The position numbers were made by a program, and so were the translations under genes. From Rhodovulum sp. ES.010 (GTDB lineage Bacteria; Pseudomonadota; Alphaproteobacteria; Rhodobacterales; Rhodobacteraceae), in NCBI RefSeq assembly GCF_900142935.1, contig NZ_FSRS01000001.1, positions 2,366,001 through 2,430,000 on the forward strand: DNA of 64,000 nt, read 5' to 3'. Of the stretch, positions 53,024 through 61,025 are shown piece by piece (positions within the stretch are counted from its first letter, which is position 1; each line of letters begins with the position of its first letter). The notes below the pieces were generated by a model. It did no database searches. It was given only the letters and a program-made list of their open reading frames with translations, and had not been told where the DNA came from.

Positions 53024-53590
53024 CTAGTTGGGGACCACGCCTTCCGCGCCGCCAGAGGCAACGGCCTGATCCGCCAGCGTGGCACGGGCGCGGGATAGGC
53101 GGCTGCGCACCGTCCCCTCGGCCACGTCGAGGCGCCGGGCGATCTGTTTCTGGCTCAGCTTCGAGAACGCGCTGAGCATCAGCACGTCGCGGTCGCAACG
53201 GCGCAGGCGCCCAAGCCCGCGGGCCAGATCGACGACCTCCATCCAGTCCTCCTGAGAGCCCTTGCGGCTCATCTGCGGGTAGCCTTCCTTCAACTCGACA
53301 TGGGTGCCGCGGCGCTTGCGCCTGCGGCACTTGTCGAAGTGGATGTTCCGAAGGATCGTGAACAGCCACTTGCCCAGATGGGTGCCTGGCTCGAACCGGT
53401 GCTGGTTGCGGATGGCGCGCAGCATGCAGTCCTGGACAAGGTCCTCGGCGTCCACCGGGTCGCGGGTCAGCGACAGGGCATAGTTCCGGAGATCCGGGAT
53501 CTCGTTAGTCAGATCTTCCTCGAAGCTCTCGGCGTCGCCACGGGGCGGACACGGTCGAGCGGTCGTCTCTGTGAGATTCGTATGTTTCAT
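53024..53590 (-). CDS. ECF-type RNA polymerase sigma factor
   Basis: 188 residues. Sigma region 2 (DPVDAEDLVQDCMLRAIRN near residue 46, KWLFTILRNIHFDKCRRRKR near 75) and region 4 (LSQKQIARRLDVAEGTVRSR near 150). Region 2 resembles EcfG-like general stress sigma factors, but no NepR or PhyR gene is adjacent. A TTATC-CGCG-GTTAA dyad lies 34 bases upstream of the ATG. No obvious anti-sigma gene follows; the downstream 117-residue protein is unassigned. Confidence 0.88.
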   Translation of the reverse strand: MKHTNLTETTARPCPPRGDAESFEEDLTNEIPDLRNYALSLTRDPVDAEDLVQDCMLRAIRNQHRFEPGTHLGKWLFTILRNIHFDKCRRRKRRGTHVELKEGYPQMSRKGSQEDWMEVVDLARGLGRLRRCDRDVLMLSAFSKLSQKQIARRLDVAEGTVRSRLSRARATLADQAVASGGAEGVVPN

Positions 53591-53624
53591 GTGGGCACCC
53601 TAGGCCAGCGCCCCGCCGAGCCAA

Positions 53625-53638
53625 TTATCCGCGGTTAA
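53625..53638. promoter_or_regulatory. Dyad A of the TTAAC-N4-GTTAA set
   Basis: TTATC-CGCG-GTTAA, one mismatch from a perfect dyad, embedded in the longer near-palindrome AATTATCCGCGGTTAATT (53623-53640). It is 34 bases upstream of the ECF sigma start. Confidence 0.6.
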
Positions 53639-53770
53639 TTGCCGCGGCTTTCCGTGTCGTAAAGCTCTGAACGCTGCGTCGGTCGACCGGCCCGCGCATG
53701 ACAGCAGCCGGGCACATGCGCAAGCCGACGCCCGGCTGGGTCGGACACCGCGGCACCATGAGCGATCGTC

Positions 53771-53972
53771 TCAGTCGTCGAGGACGAAGGTCACCTTCAT
53801 CGTGACCTTGTACTGGTCCTCACCGCTTTCGTTGACGATGAGTGCCTGATCCTTCACCCAGCAGGACTTCACGTCGCGCAGCGTCTCCTTGGCGCGCGCC
53901 CCCCTCTTTAAGAGCTTCCTCGAAGCCAGCGCTGGACATCGCGGTCAGTTCGGTCCTGCGTGCAACAGACAT
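53771..53972 (-). pseudogene. Frameshifted dodecin gene
   Basis: Dodecin is a small flavin-storage dodecamer of about 67 residues. The start MSVARRTELTAMSSAGFEEAL and the end QYKVTMKVTFVLDD are clear dodecin ends but lie in different frames. The total length from ATG to stop is 202 bases, not a multiple of three. The break falls in a run of six C (coding strand G) at 53899-53904, after FEEALKEG. The following frame reads ARAKETLRDVKSCWVKDQA. A 2-base loss (or 1-base gain) explains it. Mutation or homopolymer read error. Confidence 0.85.
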
Positions 53973-54161
53973 GACTCCGCCTTTCCGCTTGCGGTTCACC
54001 CCATCAACGCGGCGCATACGGGGACGCTGCGACTCGTCGGGCGGCAGCGCCGCCGCGCCACAAGGCGGACGGACTCGCATATGGTCGGCAAGATGGCCGC
54101 GTTGTGGTGGCGGCCGGCGCGGCGCCCAAGGCGCATGGCGCACGGCGCACGCGGCGAAGGC

Positions 54162-55604
54162 TCAGCCGCGCGCGCAACCCTCGTCGACCGGCACATCCTG
54201 ACAGGTGATCGCGTCGAGTTCGTCGAGGGACACGTCACAGCCCGCAAGCGCCTCGCGCAGCGCGCGGCGCAGCACTTCCTCGTGGGTCGGGTGATAGGCC
54301 GGCATGCGTAGCAATGCGCCAAGATCGGCGTCCTTGTCGATGGCGAAGGCCAAGAGATGGCCCATATGCTCAGCCTCCGGTCCCACGATCGCCGCCCCGA
54401 GAAGCCGCGCGGTCGCCTTCTCGGCATAAAGGCGCATGGCGCCTCCCGCCCCCCGCTGCACCAGCACCCGCCCGGTGCTGTCGAGCGATGCGCCGCCGAC
54501 GGCGATCCGTTCGTGCCGGTCGGCAAGCTCGTCCCATGTCGCGCCCGCGACGGCGATCTGCGGCTCGCAGAAGACCAGCCGAAGCGGCACCCGGCGGCGG
54601 AATGCGGCGTCCTGCCCGCGGGCGGCGAAATGGCCGGCGATTCGGCCCTCGTCCGCCGCCTCATGCAACAGCGCCGGCCCAGCGCCCGCGTCTCCGGCGA
54701 AATAGAGCCGGGCGCCGGGCGGGTTGAGACAGCCGCGCGGCAGGTCGGGCCGCCCGTCCTCGCCGAGATCGAGCCCCAGCCGGTCGAGCCCGAGCCCGTC
54801 GAGATTGGGCGCCCGTCCCATCGCGGCGAGCACGAGGTCGACCTCGACCGCGCCCTCGTCCCAGCGCATCGCGATGGCGCCGCCCTCGCCGGGTTCCGGC
54901 GCGGCCTCTGCGCGGACGATGCGCATCTCGCCCTTCAGCGCCTCGCGCAGCCGGTCGAGCAGATCCGGGTCATCGAGGCCGCCAAGCGTCGCCGACGGAT
55001 CGAACCCCGTGACCTCGACCCCGAGCCGCGCCATCGCCTGGCCGAGTTCGAGCCCGACGGGCCCGAGGCCGACAACGGCCATCCGCCGGGGCAGGGCGTC
55101 GAGTTCGAAGACCTCCTCGGTGGTCACGATCCGGTCGCCGAACCGCGCGCGCCAAGGCTCCGGCACGATGGGCCGCGTGCCCGTCGCGATCACGGTCGCG
55201 GCGGGGCGGAACCGATGCGCACCGGCGCACAGGACGCCGTCCGGCCCGAAGACCGCGGCGTGCGGCACCAGATGCGTCTCCCGCCAGTCCGCCATGCCGT
55301 CCAGCACGCCGCCGACCAGCCGGTCGCGCAATTCGCGGGTGCGGGCAAGGACCATTGCCCCGTCGGCGCGCAGGGCGTCCCCCCCGGCGATGCCGAGATC
55401 GGGCAGCGCCTCGCGCCGCTTGAAATCGTGGGCGGATTGCAGCAGCGCCTTGGACGGCATGCAGGCCGCCCGCGCACAGGTCGTGCCCAGCGGGCCGGGG
55501 TCGAAGACGCGATAGCTATCGGTGACCTTGGCGACCTCGGCCCGCGCCGAAAGCCCGGCGGTGCCGGCGCCGAGGATCGCGACATCGAGAGGCTGGGAAG
55601 TCAT
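54162..55604 (-). CDS. Dihydrolipoamide dehydrogenase-like flavin disulfide reductase
   Basis: 480 residues. FAD-binding GAGTAGLSA near residue 11, the redox disulfide in GTTCARAACMPSK (C-x4-C, near 40-52), second dinucleotide motif GLGPVGLELGQAMARLG near 180, FAD contact FAGDAGAGPALLHEA near 300, and the C-terminal catalytic HPTHEEVLRRALRE. A stand-alone member, not next to a 2-oxoacid dehydrogenase, so the substrate (lipoamide, mycothiol-like, mercury) is open. The GTTC variant of the usual GGTC motif and the poor Gly loop GTAGLSAR suggest a divergent subgroup. Confidence 0.88.
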   Translation of the reverse strand: MTSQPLDVAILGAGTAGLSARAEVAKVTDSYRVFDPGPLGTTCARAACMPSKALLQSAHDFKRREALPDLGIAGGDALRADGAMVLARTRELRDRLVGGVLDGMADWRETHLVPHAAVFGPDGVLCAGAHRFRPAATVIATGTRPIVPEPWRARFGDRIVTTEEVFELDALPRRMAVVGLGPVGLELGQAMARLGVEVTGFDPSATLGGLDDPDLLDRLREALKGEMRIVRAEAAPEPGEGGAIAMRWDEGAVEVDLVLAAMGRAPNLDGLGLDRLGLDLGEDGRPDLPRGCLNPPGARLYFAGDAGAGPALLHEAADEGRIAGHFAARGQDAAFRRRVPLRLVFCEPQIAVAGATWDELADRHERIAVGGASLDSTGRVLVQRGAGGAMRLYAEKATARLLGAAIVGPEAEHMGHLLAFAIDKDADLGALLRMPAYHPTHEEVLRRALREALAGCDVSLDELDAITCQDVPVDEGCARG

Positions 55605-55905
55605 CGTGGGTCAGTCTCCGTCGCGGCGTCGTTTTCCGGGCCGCCGATGAGGGGTGCCAGGCTGGCCTGCAGGCCGATATCGCCGGGCATGCGGCTATCA
55701 ACCATCACGCCGTGAAGGTGGGGCGGGCACCGATGCGGGGGGCGGTCAGAGACGCGGCAGCCGGTGATCTGGTCAGCAGAGGGCTCAGAATGCGCCGCGT
55801 TCCCTTCGGCGCATGGCTGACTCTCCTTCGGCGTTGGCGGCTTCCGAACCCCGCGTTCTGCCGGTGCCTGTATCCGCAACCGCCCAAGTCTGCCGGTTTC
55901 ACGCA
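55605..55905. other. Non-coding stretch upstream of the flavin reductase
   Basis: About 300 bases between the flavin reductase start and the end of the 93-residue ORF. It presumably contains the reductase promoter. I see no TTAAC dyad, hairpin or convincing small gene in it. Confidence 0.4.
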
Positions 55906-56187
55906 TCAACTGGCCCCCGGGCGCCCGCCCGCAGGGGGTGGCAGCGTCACGCGGGAGCGGTGGAAGAGCGCGCGGATCGCATGGCGCATCCGCCCCGGTT
56001 GGCGGCTCGACGGGAGGTCTTCGCCGGGGAGGGAAAGCCCGTGCCGGGCCGTATGCGGGACACCCGGCGCGGCGTGCAGCAGCGCCGCCAACTGGGCATC
56101 GGCCAACAGGACCGTCACCCTCGTCCTGCACGCTGCGGCCGCCATGGCACGGCGAAGTTCGGCATCCGGGTCGAGTTTGCCGGCCAT
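55906..56187 (-). CDS. Small unidentified protein of the stress island
   Basis: 93 residues. The first 45 (AGKLDPDAELRRAMAAAACR and on) are helical; the rest is basic and Pro-rich. Support for it being a gene is a strong ribosome site (GGAGGAG, 6 bases before the ATG) and the perfect TTAAC-GGGG-GTTAA dyad 62 bases upstream. No family recognised. Confidence 0.5.
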   Translation of the reverse strand: MAGKLDPDAELRRAMAAAACRTRVTVLLADAQLAALLHAAPGVPHTARHGLSLPGEDLPSSRQPGRMRHAIRALFHRSRVTLPPPAGGRPGAS

Positions 56188-56249
56188 GTTGCACTCCTCC
56201 AATCCGCGTTCGTCTCGCCCATCACTGCACGCGGGGCATGCCGCATGCC

Positions 56250-56263
56250 TTAACGGGGGTTAA
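56250..56263. promoter_or_regulatory. Dyad B of the TTAAC-N4-GTTAA set
   Basis: TTAAC-GGGG-GTTAA, both half-sites perfect, 62 bases upstream of the ATG of the 93-residue protein. Confidence 0.65.
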
Positions 56264-56303
56264 GTCGCGCCAGGCGCGGGCGCGTAGCGCGCATGCGCGG
56301 CAT

Positions 56304-56660
56304 TCAGCCCGCGGCTCCTTCGGTTTCGGTCGCGGACCGCCCCTCGTCCAGCCACGTCCGCGCGAGCGCTTCCTCCGCGACGGGGAAGAAGCGCATCTCG
56401 GCCTTCGCGAAGGGCGCCGACAGGGCAGTGCCCCATTCCTCGAGGGACGTCTCTCCAACCACCGCGATGCGGCCGAAATCGCCGCGGTGCTTCAGATCGA
56501 ATTTCAGGTCCCGCCAGAGCGCGCTTATGTCCCAGCCACGGAAATCCTCCAGCCGGATCAGCAGGCGCAAAGCTCCGGTCGCCAGGTCGATGGCATGTTC
56601 CAGTTCCGGCACCGCATCCTCGTAGTCCCGGACCGTCAGGCCCCCGAAGACCCGAAGCAC
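56304..56660 (-). CDS. SpoIIAA-like (STAS/SEC14-type) protein, possibly N-truncated
   Basis: 118 residues from a GTG. The SpoIIAA-like domain is clear: LEDFRGWDISALWRDLKFDL near residue 37, DFGRIAVVGETSLEEWGTAL near 61 and RFFPVAEEALARTWLDEG near 90. The first beta strand is short. Upstream in the same frame the sequence reads ITIEHG, a TAG (56676-56678), then GTDRIVLRVFGG, which looks like the missing N-terminus interrupted by a stop. No good ribosome site serves the GTG. Last gene of the phasin operon. Confidence 0.65.
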   Translation of the reverse strand: MLRVFGGLTVRDYEDAVPELEHAIDLATGALRLLIRLEDFRGWDISALWRDLKFDLKHRGDFGRIAVVGETSLEEWGTALSAPFAKAEMRFFPVAEEALARTWLDEGRSATETEGAAG

Positions 56661-56721
56661 GATCCGGTCCGTGCCCTATCCATGCTCGATGGTGATAAGG
56701 ATGTGCGCCTCACGCCTCGCC

Positions 56722-57303
56722 CTACTGGCGCATGGCCCGTGCCAACGCGATCTCCGAGATTCCGAGGAACAGAAGATCAATGCCCACCAGAAGGCCGATC
56801 GCCCAAAGCGCGGTCCCCGGCAGACCGATCAGCAACAGCACCCCGAGAGCGGTGGACAGCAAAGCGGAGAACGCGAACCACCCCCAGCCCCGGAGGCGCG
56901 GCAGGTCGGCCCGGCGGCGATAGGGCGGGCTGAGATACCAGCTGGCGACCAGTTTCGCGATGCCGCCGGCGATGAAGAAGGCCGCAAGGATCATCGTCAG
57001 CGCCACCACGGCCTCGACCGGATACAGCAGCAGGACCGCGCCGGCCACGACCGACAGCAGGCCGAAGACCAGCGTCCAGAGCTTCGATTCGACGCCCTTG
57101 GCGAAAATGGCCCGGGCCAGATGAAACAGGCCCGAGACGGCCAGGGCCGCGCCCAGCACGAGGTTGGTTGCCAGCGTGGCCGCGAACGGAAACAGGATGG
57201 CGAGCGCACCGACGACGATCGTGGCCCCGCCGCAGACCAGAAGCCAGGTCGCGACGTTCTGCCGGTCCTCGGGGGCGTTCGGGACGGTCTCGGAGATGCT
57301 CAT
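56722..57303 (-). CDS. HdeD family membrane protein
   Basis: 193 residues with six membrane helices as pairs of DUF308 repeats (LVCGGATIVVGALAILFPF, LVLGAALAVSGLFHLARAIF, LVFGLLSVVAGAVLLLYP, LTMILAAFFIAGGIAKLV). HdeD proteins support acid or general stress resistance in the inner membrane. Start at MSISETVP, with GAGGCGAC upstream. Lies 68 bases after the sll1863-like gene and 61 before the SpoIIAA-like gene. Confidence 0.9.
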   Translation of the reverse strand: MSISETVPNAPEDRQNVATWLLVCGGATIVVGALAILFPFAATLATNLVLGAALAVSGLFHLARAIFAKGVESKLWTLVFGLLSVVAGAVLLLYPVEAVVALTMILAAFFIAGGIAKLVASWYLSPPYRRRADLPRLRGWGWFAFSALLSTALGVLLLIGLPGTALWAIGLLVGIDLLFLGISEIALARAMRQ

Positions 57304-57371
57304 CGTGTCGCCTCTTTCCTGCCAGAACTGCACGCGATGGCGCGGACCGCGCCCGCGCCACCCGCAACGGG

Positions 57372-57659
57372 TTACGAAAAGCGATTCGCGGCGGATTTCA
57401 CCGCCGATTCCAGTTCGTTCCAGGCCTTCTCGATGCCGCTCTTCAGGTCCTTCCACGCCTCGCCCCGCGAGCTGTCCAACTCGTCCAGCCTGTCCTGCGC
57501 CTCGGCCTGCCGGGCGCGCAGCTTCTCGATCTGCTTGTCATATTCGACCCTGGCATCGGCGCCGGCCTCCACGGCCTTCGCCTGGAGCTTGTCGATCTCG
57601 GCGCGCCACTGGTCCAGCCTTGCCTGGATCTTCTGGCGGTATGCGTCCTTCTCGTCCAT
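57372..57659 (-). CDS. sll1863-like coiled-coil stress protein
   Basis: 95 residues, almost entirely one helix with heptad character: AYRQKIQARLDQWRAEIDKL near residue 6, EYDKQIEKLRARQAEAQDRL near 39 and WKDLKSGIEKAWNELESAV near 69. It has the layout of the sll1863-type stress-response proteins. A perfect GGAGG lies 6 bases before the ATG. Second gene of the phasin operon. Confidence 0.78.
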   Translation of the reverse strand: MDEKDAYRQKIQARLDQWRAEIDKLQAKAVEAGADARVEYDKQIEKLRARQAEAQDRLDELDSSRGEAWKDLKSGIEKAWNELESAVKSAANRFS

Positions 57660-57693
57660 CTGAACCTCCTTCATATGGTCCTGTAAATCTCGC

Positions 57694-58128
57694 TCAGACC
57701 GGGGTGGCGCCCTTCGTGGAGCGGCGGGCGACCCTGGTCCGCGACACCGCTTCCGCCACGCCTTCATTCGCAGCCTCCACCTCCGCGCTTGCGAGCCGAC
57801 CGACGCAGCGCGACCACAAATCCACCCAGTCGCCGAGATCGTCGGCAACGCGTTGCATCGACTGACTCTGCCAGTCCGCCATCGCCTGCAGGGCGGCTTG
57901 AGGCGCCACCCCCGCACCTTGCATCTCGTGCATGACTTCAAGCGCCGACTGCGCGGCCTCGTGACGGCGCCGAAACCACTTTTTCGCGGCCCCCTCGACC
58001 TCCTCGAGGATGTCCTCCTGGGCTCTCCAGAAATGCTCCAGCTGCGGCGCAGCAACGGGCCCAAGAGCAAACACACCCTGCGCCTGGCGCACCATGTCGC
58101 CGAGGGTAACGTCCGTTTCCTTCGCCAT
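57694..58128 (-). CDS. Phasin-like protein
   Basis: 144 residues, helical, of the phasin family that coats polyhydroxyalkanoate granules. The QNVFALGPVAAPQLEHFW-like start (QGVFALGPVAAPQLEHFW near residue 17) and the amphipathic SALEVMHEMQGAGVAPQAAL segment fit, with an Arg/Lys-rich tail. It is the first gene of the operon running phasin, sll1863-like, HdeD, SpoIIAA-like. Dyad C lies 65 bases upstream. Some phasin-like proteins act as stress chaperones rather than on granules. Confidence 0.78.
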   Translation of the reverse strand: MAKETDVTLGDMVRQAQGVFALGPVAAPQLEHFWRAQEDILEEVEGAAKKWFRRRHEAAQSALEVMHEMQGAGVAPQAALQAMADWQSQSMQRVADDLGDWVDLWSRCVGRLASAEVEAANEGVAEAVSRTRVARRSTKGATPV

Positions 58129-58193
58129 GGCGGTCGCTCCTGCGCTTTACGTCCAAATTCCGCCCAGTAGATGCGGAGCCGACGCAGACCGCA

Positions 58194-58207
58194 TTAACCT
58201 GCGTAAA
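58194..58207. promoter_or_regulatory. Dyad C of the TTAAC-N4-GTTAA set
   Basis: TTAAC-CTGC-GTAAA, one half-site perfect. 65 bases upstream of the phasin operon on the minus strand and 181 bases before the divergent Crp/Fnr gene. Confidence 0.55.
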
Positions 58208-58388
58208 CTGTCGCTCGGCAATCCGACGCCGAGCACCCCATTGGTCGACGCCCGCAAGCGAAAGATGAGAAGCTCCCTTTTTCCAATGGGTTGAACAGCG
58301 CCACACCCCGGCGGGACACGCGTGCCCAGCAACGCCAACCGCCGCGCCCGGCCGCCCGGCGCGCTTCCGCATTGAAAAGGGGGCCGAA

Positions 58389-59255
58389 ATGGACAACCAT
58401 GAGAACAGCAGGGGGTGGGGTTGTATTTCAAGGCTCGTGGCCGATTGGGCGCCTTGGCCACGCGATTCTCTGGGTTCACCGTCACAGCGGGAAGATATGG
58501 TACTGGCACCGGAACATTCGAAAGACGAAACCTTGGCGCGGGATATCTTGCCGCCGACGTGGCAGCGCCTTGAAGCCGCGTCCTCTGCGGCGCTGTCGGA
58601 CACGCTCGGCCGCCACATTCGGGAGCGGCCTGCCGCCGAGACGCTGAAACTGGAAGGCGACGGGGTTCGCTCGGTCTTCTTCCTCCTCTCGGGGTGGTTC
58701 GCCGTGTCCAAATCGATGGAGGACGGGCATCGGCAGATTCTCGACCTGATGCTGGCCGGCGACGTTCTCAACCCGGGGTCGGCGGACGCAAGCGCCAGCG
58801 CCGTGCATATAGAGGTGCTGGCCGACGTGGCCTTCTCGGCCGTGCCGCTCGACGTCTGGGAACGGTTGCTCGACGAGCAGCCGCAGATACGCAGGCTTCA
58901 CGATACCAACATGAAGGCGTCCATGGCGCGCATGGCCGAACGCATGCTCCGTTTGGGCAAGGGCAGCGCGGCAAGCCGGATCGCCTACGCGCTCATCGAG
59001 CTTTGCATGCGGCTCGACGCGATCGGCGCGGCCGAAGAAGACGGGTTCCACGTGCCGCTCACGCAGCAGCAACTGGGCGATTTCACCGGTCTGTCGGCGG
59101 TCCATATCTGCCGCACCCTGCGGCGCATGTCGCGTAAGGAGATCATCTCGGTCGAAGAACACATGCACATCCTGATTCGCGACATGGACGCGCTCGCGGA
59201 GATCGCCGAAGTCGATCCCGACAGTTTGCGGAGCCAGATCATCCCGGCGGCCTGA
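58389..59255 (+). CDS. Crp/Fnr family transcriptional regulator
   Basis: 288 residues. The N-terminal segment of about 50 residues is unusual and Cys-poor (no FNR-type iron-sulfur Cys set). A cyclic-nucleotide-binding-like domain (about 55-165), the dimer helix, and a helix-turn-helix at about 224-247 (LTQQQLGDFTG, recognition helix with AVHICRTLRRM) follow. FNR reads its site through a Glu-x-x-Ser-Arg pattern; here the equivalent positions are Val-x-x-Cys-Arg. Start at 58389 with AAGGGGG 5 bases upstream; 58497 is an alternative start that would drop the extension. Divergent from the phasin operon. Confidence 0.88.
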   Translation: MDNHENSRGWGCISRLVADWAPWPRDSLGSPSQREDMVLAPEHSKDETLARDILPPTWQRLEAASSAALSDTLGRHIRERPAAETLKLEGDGVRSVFFLLSGWFAVSKSMEDGHRQILDLMLAGDVLNPGSADASASAVHIEVLADVAFSAVPLDVWERLLDEQPQIRRLHDTNMKASMARMAERMLRLGKGSAASRIAYALIELCMRLDAIGAAEEDGFHVPLTQQQLGDFTGLSAVHICRTLRRMSRKEIISVEEHMHILIRDMDALAEIAEVDPDSLRSQIIPAA

Positions 59256-59269
59256 CGCAGGGACCGGGG

Positions 59270-59680
59270 CTAACGCATCTCGGTGATCTCGCCCAGCGCC
59301 TGGCCGGCGAGTTCCTCGGACACGTTCTCGGCAATATCGCCGAGCGAGATCATGCCCACGATCCGCCGATCGCCATTGACCACCGGCAGGCGACGGATCT
59401 GCATTTCTCCCATCACTTCCGACGCCACGACCACTGGCTGGTCGGCCCGACAGGTCACCGGATCGGGTGACATGACCTCGCCCACCGGCCTGTCGACAGC
59501 GCCGTCCGGCATCGCACGTGTCACGATATCGCGGTCGGTGACCACACCGACAAGATCGTCTCCGGCCAGCACCGCAAGCGCCCCCACCCCATGCGCGCGC
59601 ATCAGCAAGGCCGCCTCGCGAATCGGCATCGACGGGTTTGCCACGACCGCCGGTGAAGACATGACATTTCGGACTTCCAT
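59270..59680 (-). CDS. CBS-domain pair protein
   Basis: 136 residues, two CBS domains (VRNVMSSPAVVANPSMPIRE near residue 3, VGEVMSPDPVTCRADQPVVV near 67). CBS pairs bind adenosine nucleotides and act as energy or redox sensors. Each domain carries the VTDRDI / MISLGDI ending. Start at MEVRNVM; dyad D is 62 bases upstream. Convergent with the Crp/Fnr gene. Confidence 0.9.
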   Translation of the reverse strand: MEVRNVMSSPAVVANPSMPIREAALLMRAHGVGALAVLAGDDLVGVVTDRDIVTRAMPDGAVDRPVGEVMSPDPVTCRADQPVVVASEVMGEMQIRRLPVVNGDRRIVGMISLGDIAENVSEELAGQALGEITEMR

Positions 59681-59742
59681 CGGTCTCTTTCCATTGTCTT
59701 CATTGGAGTGTCGTGGCGTAACATCCTGCACGGCATTTTTCG

Positions 59743-59756
59743 TTAACATCGGTCAA
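59743..59756. promoter_or_regulatory. Dyad D of the TTAAC-N4-GTTAA set
   Basis: TTAAC-ATCG-GTCAA, left half-site perfect, one mismatch in the right. 62 bases upstream of the CBS gene and 36 bases before the small plus-strand ORF at 59793. Confidence 0.55.
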
Positions 59757-59792
59757 GGCACGGGGCCTCTCGCGCCCGACCTCTCGGACCAA

Positions 59793-59957
59793 ATGCTGCA
59801 AGAGGTCATCGGCCATCTCGGCCCGTGGCCGCGCGATGCGCTGGCGGCGATGATCGACTACAGCCGCAGCAATACCGACATTGGGCGCTTTTGCGCACTC
59901 CCGGAGAAGACGGTCGCCGCGCTCCGCAAGCTTTGGAGCTGCCCCGGAGTGGGCTGA
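59793..59957 (+). CDS. Possible 54-residue protein
   Basis: A short ORF (MLQEVIGHLGPWPRDALAAM then TDIGRFCALPEKTVAALRKL) that reads like a small helical DNA-associated protein. No clear ribosome site. Listed because dyad D lies between it and the CBS gene and could serve both. Confidence 0.35.
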   Translation: MLQEVIGHLGPWPRDALAAMIDYSRSNTDIGRFCALPEKTVAALRKLWSCPGVG

Positions 59958-60000
59958 TCCCTGGCACGGGCCGGGGCGCTTTCGCCCAACCGCGCCGCTC

Positions 60001-60264
60001 TCAGGTTTCCGGGTAGTCGGGCCCGGACTCCCCTCCAGTCTTGCCGGCCGCGGGCTTGCCGCTCTGCATCTTCCAGTGCGGGTCTTCACTCTTGATCCAG
60101 CGTGAGATCGCGTAGGCCGCCGGCCATGTCAGGACGAGCCCCAAGGCAACGGCAAGCGCGATGGGCTGCCACGCGTAAAAGCCCAGGGCGAGCACGACGA
60201 TCACGAAACTGCCCACGAGGACGGAGCCCGTCATGAAGGTGAGCACGATGCTCAGGCGATCCAA
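60001..60264 (-). CDS. Small two-helix membrane protein with TTG start
   Basis: 87 residues. Two membrane helices (about residues 12-33 and 38-56: GSFVIVVLALGFYAWQPIAL) and a soluble basic tail (SRWIKSEDPHWKMQSGKPAA). The start is a TTG: AAGGAG lies 6 bases upstream of it and no in-frame ATG has one. Dyad E is 75 bases upstream. Not a named family. Confidence 0.65.
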   Translation of the reverse strand: MDRLSIVLTFMTGSVLVGSFVIVVLALGFYAWQPIALAVALGLVLTWPAAYAISRWIKSEDPHWKMQSGKPAAGKTGGESGPDYPET

Positions 60265-60339
60265 GAAAGCCTCCTTTCCGGCCCCCGGAAGGTGGGGGTC
60301 GCTTGCGGGAGCCTCCGCAAAGGCGCCGGTTGCGGCATT

Positions 60340-60353
60340 AACGCGCGTTAAGG
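60340..60353. promoter_or_regulatory. Dyad E of the TTAAC-N4-GTTAA set
   Basis: TTAAC-GCGC-GTTAA, a perfect 14-base palindrome in the divergent region between the small membrane protein (75 bases away) and the HhH protein (33 bases away). Confidence 0.65.
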
Positions 60354-60386
60354 ACCCGCGGGGCGGCTGCTGCCAGCCATGTGCAC

Positions 60387-61025
60387 ATGGTATCCTCGAC
60401 CGCAGCCCCCGCACGGACCGCCGCGCAACTGCCCGACCGTCATGGCACGTTATTTTCGCGCGAGTTGGGCATCGACCTCACGCAGGCGACGCCCGCGCCG
60501 CTCTTTCGCTGGCTCTGCGCCGCCTTGCTGATGAGCGCCAGGATTTTGCATCGCACCGCGCTCGATGCCGCGAGGGCGCTGGCCGCGGCCGGGTGGACCA
60601 CGGCGGACAAGATGGCCGCCAGCGCGTGGAAGGATCGCGTGCGCGTTCTCAACCGCGCGGGCTATGCCCGCTATGACGAAAGCACCGCGCGGATGCTGGG
60701 CGAGACGGCGGACCTTCTGATCGCGGAGTATGACGGCGATCTGCGCAACCTGCGTGCGGCCGCGGGCCGGGATTGCGCGGCGCAGCGTGCGCGGCTCAAG
60801 GCGTTCAAGGGCATCGGCGATGTCGGCGCCGACATCTTCTTCCGCGAGGTGCAGACGATCTGGACCGAACACTACCCGTTCATGGACGCCATGGCGCGCA
60901 AGGCGGCGCGGCGGCAGGGCCTGCCCGACGACGCCGATGCGCTTGCCGAACTGGTCGGGCGCGAACGCTATGCCGCTGTGCTTGCGGCGCTGGTCCGGGC
61001 CGAACTGGCCGACGGATCGGACTAG
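60387..61025 (+). CDS. HhH-GPD-like (endonuclease III fold) protein
   Basis: 212 residues. Helix-hairpin-helix segment LKAFKGIGDVGADIFFREVQ near residue 133 and a candidate catalytic Asp in PFMDAMARKAARRQG near 165. There is no iron-sulfur Cys cluster, and the family's catalytic Lys/Asp set is only partly visible, so activity is uncertain; it may only bind DNA. Start ATG 60387; a GTG at 60381 is possible. Dyad E lies just upstream. Confidence 0.72.
   Translation: MVSSTAAPARTAAQLPDRHGTLFSRELGIDLTQATPAPLFRWLCAALLMSARILHRTALDAARALAAAGWTTADKMAASAWKDRVRVLNRAGYARYDESTARMLGETADLLIAEYDGDLRNLRAAAGRDCAAQRARLKAFKGIGDVGADIFFREVQTIWTEHYPFMDAMARKAARRQGLPDDADALAELVGRERYAAVLAALVRAELADGSD

What the first reader, a model, noticed from the sequence alone, without database searches (positions are those of the whole stretch)
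53625..60353. Five TTAAC-N4-GTTAA dyads mark a putative undescribed Crp/Fnr-type regulon in a stress island
Sites at 53625 (TTATC-CGCG-GTTAA), 56250 (TTAAC-GGGG-GTTAA), 58194 (TTAAC-CTGC-GTAAA), 59743 (TTAAC-ATCG-GTCAA) and 60340 (TTAAC-GCGC-GTTAA). They share a fixed 5-4-5 layout and lie in non-coding DNA 34, 62, 65, 62 and 75 bases upstream of the ECF sigma factor, a small protein, the phasin/sll1863/HdeD/SpoIIAA operon, the CBS protein and a small membrane protein. TTAA is rare in this GC-rich DNA, and nearly every TTAA I can find between 49 and 64 kb is an arm of one of these sites. A 5-4-5 dyad is the Crp/Fnr-family operator layout (FNR reads TTGAT-N4-ATCAA), and the island encodes such a regulator at 58389. 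Distances near 62-75 suit activation from about -41. The link to this regulator is inference.
Basis: partly seen in the sequence, partly recalled or inferred. Interest (0 to 1): 0.85.

Follow-up and report, generated by a model that had tools for sequence, protein, structure and literature searches.

The report
Island operons with their own switch
Five short mirror-image DNA sites in a bacterium of the Rhodobacteraceae group look like the on-switches by which one local regulator protein turns on a small set of stress and storage genes; the switch type is familiar, but this regulator and its gene set seem undescribed.

Summary
TTAAC-N4-GTTAA with at most one mismatch occurs 11 times in the 3.83-Mb genome, and 5 of the 11 lie at 53625-60351, including both perfect copies (chance about 4e-9). 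In 80 named loci around relatives of the 58389 regulator, the perfect dyad occurs 37 times, against 0-6 for its 29 letter permutations and 0-1 for the other spacings tried. A matrix built from those loci alone ranks the five window sites 1-5 in the window. Downstream of the dyads a -10 element sits at one fixed distance, which puts the dyad centre at -41.5, the class II activator position. CBS homologues occur only in regulator-carrying genomes (8 of 8, own included). Phasin-like genes carry the site in 5 of 8 carrier genomes (own included) and 0 of 8 non-carriers. The operator itself is not new: it is in print for Campylobacter NssR. New here is a Crp/Fnr subfamily with recognition helix V-H-x-C-R and its small island regulon. 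Weak points: no binding data, unknown signal, no genome-wide excess, hybrid sites that FnrL/Dnr may also read, no conservation for the ECF site.

The parts
53625..53638 (-). Operator 1 (TTATC-N4-GTTAA), 34 bp upstream of the ECF sigma gene; weakest site
   Evidence: matrix score 16.2, above the training minimum 13.3 but below the 5th percentile 17.5; no conservation
53597..53602 (-). Inferred -10 element TAGGGT of the ECF gene; the start point would be the A of its ATG (leaderless)
   Evidence: fixed spacing rule applied to the window; inference
53024..53590 (-). ECF sigma factor
   Evidence: Sigma70_r2 and Sigma70_r4_2
56250..56263 (-). Operator 2 (perfect dyad), 62 bp upstream of a 93-aa ORF
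   Evidence: score 23.4; inferred -10 CAGTGA at 56222-56227
55906..56187 (-). Small ORF, 93 aa, no homologue found
   Evidence: translation; no homologue in 80 loci; not scanned against family libraries
58194..58207 (-). Operator 3 (TTAAC-N4-GTAAA) between the phasin operon and the regulator gene
   Evidence: score 20.5; a site upstream of phasin homologues in 29 of 36 loci; inferred -10 TCTACT at 58166-58171
57694..58128 (-). Phasin-like protein, first gene of the operon
   Evidence: no Pfam hit itself; of five relatives one (L156, from a non-carrier genome) passes PF09361 Phasin_2 (32.4 bits, cut-off 24.9), four fall below it
57372..57659 (-). sll1863-family stress protein
   Evidence: NF052504, 1.2e-34
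56722..57303 (-). HdeD/DUF308 membrane protein
   Evidence: below curated cut-off; PF03729 above cut-off
56304..56660 (-). SpoIIAA-like protein
   Evidence: PF11964
58497..59255 (+). Crp/Fnr-type regulator, 252 aa from the ATG at 58497 (listed from 58389 as 288 aa); recognition helix GLSAVHICRTLRRM
   Evidence: cNMP_binding and HTH_Crp_2; most of the 120 relatives listed have 247-261 aa; alignment A1; model pLDDT 82
59743..59756 (-). Operator 4 (TTAAC-N4-GTCAA), 62 bp upstream of the CBS gene and 36 bp from the start of a divergent small ORF
   Evidence: score 21.9; a site upstream of CBS homologues in 25 of 61 loci and 5 of 8 family genomes, own included; inferred -10 TACGCC at 59715-59720
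59270..59680 (-). CBS-domain protein
   Evidence: PF00571 1.1e-29; homologues at E<=1e-25 only in regulator carriers, 8 of 8, own included
59793..59957 (+). Conserved small ORF (54 aa) divergent from the CBS gene, facing operator 4
   Evidence: homologues in 10 of 80 loci, 4 with a site within 220 bp upstream; cluster 11 (window plus 4 loci), T-7 in 5 of 5, A-11 in 4 of 5, the window being the one without A; no Pfam family
60338..60351 (-). Operator 5 (perfect dyad), 73 bp upstream of a small membrane protein gene
   Evidence: score 27.2, the best in 64 kb; the single locus with a homologue (L131) has the same perfect dyad at -79; inferred -10 GAGGCT at 60310-60315
60001..60264 (-). Small membrane-type protein (by eye), 87 aa, TTG start
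   Evidence: cluster 24; no family

Best explanation
The five dyads are operators of the Crp/Fnr-family protein encoded at 58497-59255. A dimer binds GCATTAAC-N4-GTTAATGC-like sites centred at -41.5 and activates, in class II fashion, sigma-70-type promoters of a small local regulon: the phasin/sll1863/HdeD/SpoIIAA operon, the CBS protein, the small membrane protein, the 93-aa ORF and, less surely, the ECF sigma factor. Its recognition helix carries Val and Cys where FNR has Glu209 and Ser212, which fits reading TTAAC instead of TTGAY. Shown by sequence: the clustering, conservation around regulator orthologues, spacing, non-coding location, -10 spacing and gene co-occurrence. Inferred: binding by this protein, activation rather than repression, and the physiological signal. 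Energy or oxygen limitation is suggested by the site-bearing genes of relatives (phasin, dodecin, Hsp20, thiolase; with weaker promoter evidence hibernation factor, PhaC and Usp).
For: In 80 orthologue loci (1.398 Mb): 37 perfect dyads against 0-6 for 29 permutations; only N4 enriched among N0-N12 (37, others 0-1); 68 of 80 loci have a site at <=1 mismatch. Coding-like location 4 of 147 real, 106 of 306 control sites, random positions 0.50. ANNNT (A-11, T-7) at +24 after the dyad in 90 of 293 directions, mean elsewhere 10.6, maximum 19 outside +23 to +25; 70 of 253 after redundancy removal, maximum elsewhere 18. A matrix trained without the window ranks the five sites 1-5 in 64 kb, next score 11.7. 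CBS co-occurrence 8 of 8, own included. Phasin-like gene with site: 5 of 8 carrier genomes (own included), 0 of 8 non-carriers, Fisher P 0.026. Own genome: 12 TTGAC-N4-GTCAA sites, none in the island. Helix V, H and R invariant in the ten-member alignment. More distant homologues: sites within 1.5 kb in 5 of 27, against 53 of 72 in the subfamily.
Against: No binding or expression data. No genome-wide excess: 19 perfect sites in nine carriers against 19 control matches, 17 in eleven non-carriers against 13. At <=1 mismatch one control arm, ATCAT, comes near (115 against 147; the other 28 give 0-25), and N3 gives 14. 12 of 80 loci have no site. Directions without a conserved gene show the -10 letters almost as often (30 of 110) as those with one (64 of 194). 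In the window only ECF and the membrane gene have both A-11 and T-7; the other three have one of the two. Little or no -10 support: ATPase beta-type subunit 0 of 9, HdeD 0 of 6, Usp 0 of 3, P-type ATPase 1 of 7, PhaC 1 of 3, hibernation factor 2 of 8, regulator's own direction 2 of 31. HdeD and SpoIIAA homologues in relatives have no site of their own (0 of 10, 0 of 8). ECF: no homologue in 80 loci and only the own genome of 198. The 80 loci are related and some share a genome.
Confidence: 0.85

Rival explanations
1. The sites are FnrL/Dnr boxes: another Crp/Fnr paralogue of the genome reads them, and the local regulator is incidental or redundant.
For: In Dinoroseobacter shibae the hybrid TTAAC-N4-GTCAA is an Fnr/Dnr site whose mutation was tested in a nirS-lacZ fusion (PMC5398030, passages read). 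Hybrids are the commonest variant here (63 in 80 loci). Phasin-like genes of four family genomes carry FNR-type sites (carriers G183 and G152, non-carriers G134 and G119).
Against: In the own genome the 12 TTGAC-N4-GTCAA sites all lie outside the island and both perfect TTAAC-N4-GTTAA sites inside it. Of the six other matches above the HTH_Crp_2 cut-off, three have E-T-x-[SC]-R helices, including the four-Cys FnrL-like L022, and none has V-H-I-C-R (seven matches below the cut-off were not read). Phasin-like genes of non-carriers lack the TTAAC type, 0 of 8.
Confidence: 0.1
2. CtrA (TTAA-N7-TTAA type) reads the sites.
For: CtrA shares the TTAAC half-site, noted in PMC7232146, which writes it TTAAC-N5-GTTAAC (passage read).
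Against: Spacing here is one base shorter: 37 perfect dyads at N4, 1 at N5, 0 at N6; TTAA-N7-TTAA occurs 6 times in 1.4 Mb.
Confidence: 0.01
3. The regulator is an NssR/HcpR2-type nitrosative-stress regulator in the strict sense, with NO as its signal.
For: NssR of Campylobacter jejuni has the same consensus TTAACnnnnGTTAA (PMC1274295, passage read); non-Glu at the CRP-181 position in both.
Against: NssR has A180/Q181; here the positions are A, S or N (rarely others) and Val. No globin among the ten cluster representatives scanned. The best NCBIfam matches are FnrL and FixK, both far below their cut-offs, and the best PDB matches FNR and FixK2. NssR itself was not compared by sequence.
Confidence: 0.05
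4. Chance AT-rich palindromes in spacers.
For: One-mismatch totals equal the reversed control genome-wide; spacers are usually AT-richer than genes in GC-rich genomes (recalled, not measured here).
Confidence: 0.01

Closest known systems
FNR / FnrL / FixK / DNR regulons of alphaproteobacteria
   Same: Crp/Fnr fold (best PDB hits A. fischeri FNR), 5-4-5 dyad, -41.5 position as reported for D. shibae nosR2 and hemA3, overlap in gene type with the microoxia-induced set of Bradyrhizobium (Usp, CBS, phasin, host attachment protein; PMC6515984 passages)
   Different: Recognition helix V-H-x-C-R instead of E-x-x-S-R, operator arm TTAAC instead of TTGAY, no N-terminal cysteine cluster, regulon confined largely to one island
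NssR of Campylobacter jejuni
   Same: Operator TTAACnnnnGTTAA and loss of Glu at the CRP-181 position (PMC1274295)
   Different: Other helix residues (A/Q against A-S-N/V), other targets (a globin, cgb), epsilonproteobacterium (recalled)
NnrR
   Same: Crp/Fnr member of alphaproteobacteria with non-canonical operator
   Different: Consensus ctTTGcgnnnncgCAAag; TTGCG-N4-CGCAA occurs 4 times against 37 TTAAC dyads in the 80 loci

Membership tests
Crp/Fnr superfamily | cNMP-binding-type sensor domain plus Crp-type HTH | tested here: met
   PF00027 and PF13545 above cut-off; FNR/CRP fold
Crp/Fnr superfamily | palindromic 5-4-5 operator and class II position -41.5 | tested here: met
   (from sequence; start points not measured)
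FNR/FixK/DNR subgroup | Glu209, Ser212, Arg213 in the recognition helix | tested here: not met
   Val, Cys, Arg in 77 of 78 loci aligned (L134 has Ser for Cys); L019 has Asn for Cys; FNR equivalence
FNR (Fe-S oxygen sensor) | N-terminal cysteine cluster | tested here: not met
   no Cys among invariant or nearly invariant columns outside the helix; the FnrL-like paralogue L022 has four N-terminal Cys
NnrR | TTGCG-N4-CGCAA operator | tested here: not met
   4 against 37
NssR | operator TTAACnnnnGTTAA | tested here: met
   consensus
NssR | A180/Q181 specificity residues | tested here: not met
   A/S/N and Val
NssR | sequence orthology and globin target | not tested
   NssR sequence not fetched; no globin among the ten cluster representatives scanned
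CtrA | TTAA-N7-TTAA spacing | tested here: not met
CRP | cAMP-binding residues | not tested
   ligand pocket not examined residue by residue

The most novel reading that the evidence does not exclude
A self-contained, horizontally moving storage-and-dormancy module (phasin, CBS and, in relatives, PhaC, thiolase, hibernation factor, Hsp20, dodecin, Usp) that carries its own Crp/Fnr activator with a re-tuned recognition helix. Loss of Glu209 and change of Ser212 to Cys would shift the operator from TTGAY to TTAAC, convergent with NssR, and so insulate the module partly from the host's FnrL network; hybrid TTAAC/TTGAC sites would be the points where both networks meet.
Probability: 0.5. Interest if true: 0.62.

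Novelty: new member of a known kind. Interest (0 to 1): 0.5.

Why it matters
It assigns an operator, a promoter geometry and a target set to a regulator subfamily for which the 120 listed relatives carry only generic names such as 'Crp/Fnr family transcriptional regulator' or 'CRP-like cAMP-binding protein', or none. By record titles it occurs in many Rhodobacteraceae and a few others such as Hoeflea, Martelella, Roseitalea and Oceaniradius. It gives a natural test of the published link between CRP residues 180/181 and operator letters, because two dissimilar regulators without Glu at 181 share TTAAC. It also predicts which genes of the storage/stasis set answer to it and not to FnrL.

Tried and rejected
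CtrA was rejected on spacing. NnrR was rejected on the operator. Chance was rejected. A regulon spread over the whole genome was rejected: outside the island only three TTDAC-N4-GTHAA sites are not of the TTGAC/TTGAC type (74281, 684787, 3473712). A first genome-contig scan with the single protein confirmed no relative; the alignment scan found 105, of which 80 were kept. Looking for a conserved ECF partner failed. No tRNA was found in the window that could mark an island edge. The solved-structure search and AlphaFold model place the fold but give no ligand. A paper search requiring three of four terms (Crp Fnr family, phasin, HdeD, CBS domain) returned none. 'TTAAC-N4-GTTAA' returned 0 papers; 'TTAACNNNNGTTAA' returned one, the NssR passage. 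Other searches showed no description of this regulator in their listings or in the passages I read; open-licence papers only. The CRP-180/181 to FNR-208/209 equivalence and the class II description are recalled, partly backed.
Full report
What was checked. The five dyads are present. At up to two mismatches the window holds 6 matches against 1.18 expected (0 of 100 shuffles reach 6). In the whole 3.83-Mb genome there are 11 sites at <=1 mismatch; 5 are in this 6.7-kb stretch, including the only two perfect ones. The probability of 5 or more of 11 in one stated stretch is about 8e-12, about 4e-9 over all such stretches. The total of 11 equals the reversed control pattern (11), so clustering is the signal. 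In 15 other members of the genus the pattern gives 1-11 sites per genome against 11-20 control matches.

The regulator. The 58389 ORF has a cNMP-type sensor domain and a Crp HTH; from ATG 58497 it is 252 aa, like most of its 120 listed relatives. At E<=1e-30 it occurs in 10 of 198 family genomes, own included, and in 1 of 16 genomes of its own genus, the own one, which suggests horizontal gain (inference). Its recognition helix GLSAVHICRTLRRM aligns with FNR's GLTVETISRLLGRF (profile alignment): Glu209 becomes Val and Ser212 becomes Cys. V, H and R are invariant in ten aligned members; 77 of the 78 loci aligned keep V-H-x-C-R (L134 has Ser; L131 and L138 were too short and left out). The own genome has 14 HTH_Crp_2 matches, 7 above the cut-off. 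I read those 7: the regulator, L022 (four N-terminal Cys and ETVSR, FnrL-like), L023 (ETLSR), L026 (ETICR), L025, L027 and L028 (GntR-like by eye). None of the six others has V-H-I-C-R; the 7 below the cut-off were not read.

Relatives. An alignment scan of genome contigs gave 105 relatives; the best 80 loci were kept, 1.398 Mb in all. There TTAAC-N4-GTTAA occurs 37 times exactly. The 29 other permutations of the same letters give 0-6, and spacings N0-N12 other than N4 give 0-1. Among all 1024 arms it ranks seventh, behind six arms made of G and C only. At <=1 mismatch it gives 147; one permutation, ATCAT, gives 115 and the other 28 give 0-25, so the one-mismatch count alone is less telling. 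The 147 sites lie in 68 of the 80 loci. The commonest changes are at arm position 3 (A to G 63, A to T 22); the flanks extend the palindrome to GCATTAAC-N4-GTTAATGC (window included). 78 of 147 sites lie within 1 kb of the regulator gene. 4 of 147 lie inside coding-like ORFs, against 106 of 306 control sites and half of random positions. The nine other carrier genomes partly coincide with the 80 loci (equal contig lengths), so they are not independent; 8 of their 19 perfect sites lie within 17 kb of the regulator.

Promoter geometry. For 163 site-gene pairs whose ORF is conserved in at least three loci (window included, the regulator's own direction left out), A stands at +24 after the dyad in 50% and T at +28 in 55%, the -11A and -7T of a -10 element. 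The pair ANNNT peaks at +24 (62 of 163; 21 and 17 at the neighbouring offsets; at most 14 elsewhere). Without using any ORF and without the window, 90 of 293 directions have it (mean elsewhere 10.6, maximum 19), while control palindromes show 17 of 612 at +24, below their own mean of 26.2. Those control sites show 51 at +23, unexplained; 15 of the 115 ATCAT-type control sites share one 14-mer. After removing similar flanks 70 of 253 remain. Directions without a conserved gene carry both letters in 30 of 110, those with one in 64 of 194: the element goes with the dyad more than with my list of conserved genes. A -10 at this distance puts the dyad centre at -41.5. In the window, the ECF gene (TAGGGT) and the membrane gene (GAGGCT) have both letters; phasin (TCTACT), CBS (TACGCC) and the 93-aa ORF (CAGTGA) have one. 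For the ECF gene the start point would be the A of its ATG.

Targets. Site-bearing gene clusters (window counted as a locus) include the phasin-like gene (30 loci), CBS (26), an ATP synthase alpha/beta-type subunit, ribosome hibernation factor and dodecin (8 each), Hsp20 (7), thiolase, P-type ATPase and HdeD (5 each), and PhaC and Usp (3 each) (families of these, phasin and CBS aside, checked on one representative each). Both -10 letters: dodecin 7 of 8, thiolase 5 of 6, Hsp20 4 of 8, CBS 14 of 28, phasin 11 of 34, hibernation factor 2 of 8, PhaC 1 of 3, P-type ATPase 1 of 7, ATPase subunit 0 of 9, HdeD 0 of 6, Usp 0 of 3, regulator's own direction 2 of 31. By tblastn, phasin homologues occur in 36 of 80 loci, 29 with a site within 220 bp; CBS in 61, 25 with a site; the regulator in 80, 18 with a site; the small membrane protein in 1, with the same perfect dyad; sll1863 in 13 (1 with site), HdeD in 10 and SpoIIAA in 8 (none with site); ECF in none. 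The 54-aa ORF facing operator 4 has homologues in 10 of 80 loci, 4 with a site. The phasin label rests on relatives: one of five scanned passes the Phasin_2 cut-off, and the window protein has no hit.

Link to the regulator. CBS homologues at E<=1e-25 are found in 8 of 198 family genomes, all 8 regulator carriers, own included (P 9e-13); 5 of the 8 have a site at <=1 mismatch upstream. Phasin-like genes are found in 16 of 198; a site lies upstream in 5 of 8 carrier genomes, own included, and 0 of 8 non-carriers (P 0.026). A second copy in G141 with a stop inside, without site, was not counted. 5 of these 27 have a TTAAC-type site within 1.5 kb, none of them among the five with E-x-x-S-R helices, of which three have FNR-type sites. 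In the subfamily it is 53 of 72 with full flanks (P 1.5e-6). A matrix trained only on the relatives gives the five window sites the five best scores in 64 kb (27.2 to 16.2; next 11.7; lowest training score 13.3).

Against and open. No excess of the motif exists genome-wide. 12 of 80 loci lack a site. Hybrid sites (63 in the loci) resemble FnrL/Dnr sites of D. shibae (passages read), so cross-talk is likely. The ECF site stands on its score and geometry alone. The signal is unknown: no Cys cluster was found, and the ligand pocket was not examined. Activation is inferred from geometry.

Comparison with the known. TTAACnnnnGTTAA is already in print as the NssR motif of Campylobacter jejuni, with A180/Q181 (passage read, PMC1274295), and the same paper ties residues 180/181 to operator letters (section read). 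The present regulator fits that rule but is not shown to be NssR. Dufour et al. describe eight alphaproteobacterial Crp/Fnr groups (section 8 read, PMC2908626); their figure is not held, so one of the groups may contain this subfamily. Verdict: a real, probably undescribed local regulon of a known kind.

Noticed in passing
window 53779-53980 (-): A dodecin gene is split over two reading frames; dodecin is a site-bearing regulon gene in 8 relatives.
   Followed up: partly
window 59793-59957 (+): A conserved 54-aa ORF without a Pfam family faces operator 4 divergently from the CBS gene; homologues in 10 of 80 loci, 4 with a site.
   Followed up: partly
window 60381-61025 (+): A 214-aa ORF diverges from operator 5; homologues in 2 of 80 loci, one (L088) with a dyad 72 bp upstream.
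   Followed up: no
G000:C1 893964-896178: Two Crp/Fnr paralogues (L023, L026) lie beside three TTGAC-N4-GTCAA sites, apparently a separate FNR-type locus.
   Followed up: no
G199:C12 10441 and 10487; likewise G002, G035, G183, G204, G208: Pairs of identical TTAACAGCTGTTAA 46-58 bp apart recur in at least six genomes, with and without the regulator; unexplained, perhaps another regulator's sites.
   Followed up: no
L060-L139: Control palindromes show an ANNNT excess at +23 (51 of 612), not explained.
   Followed up: no
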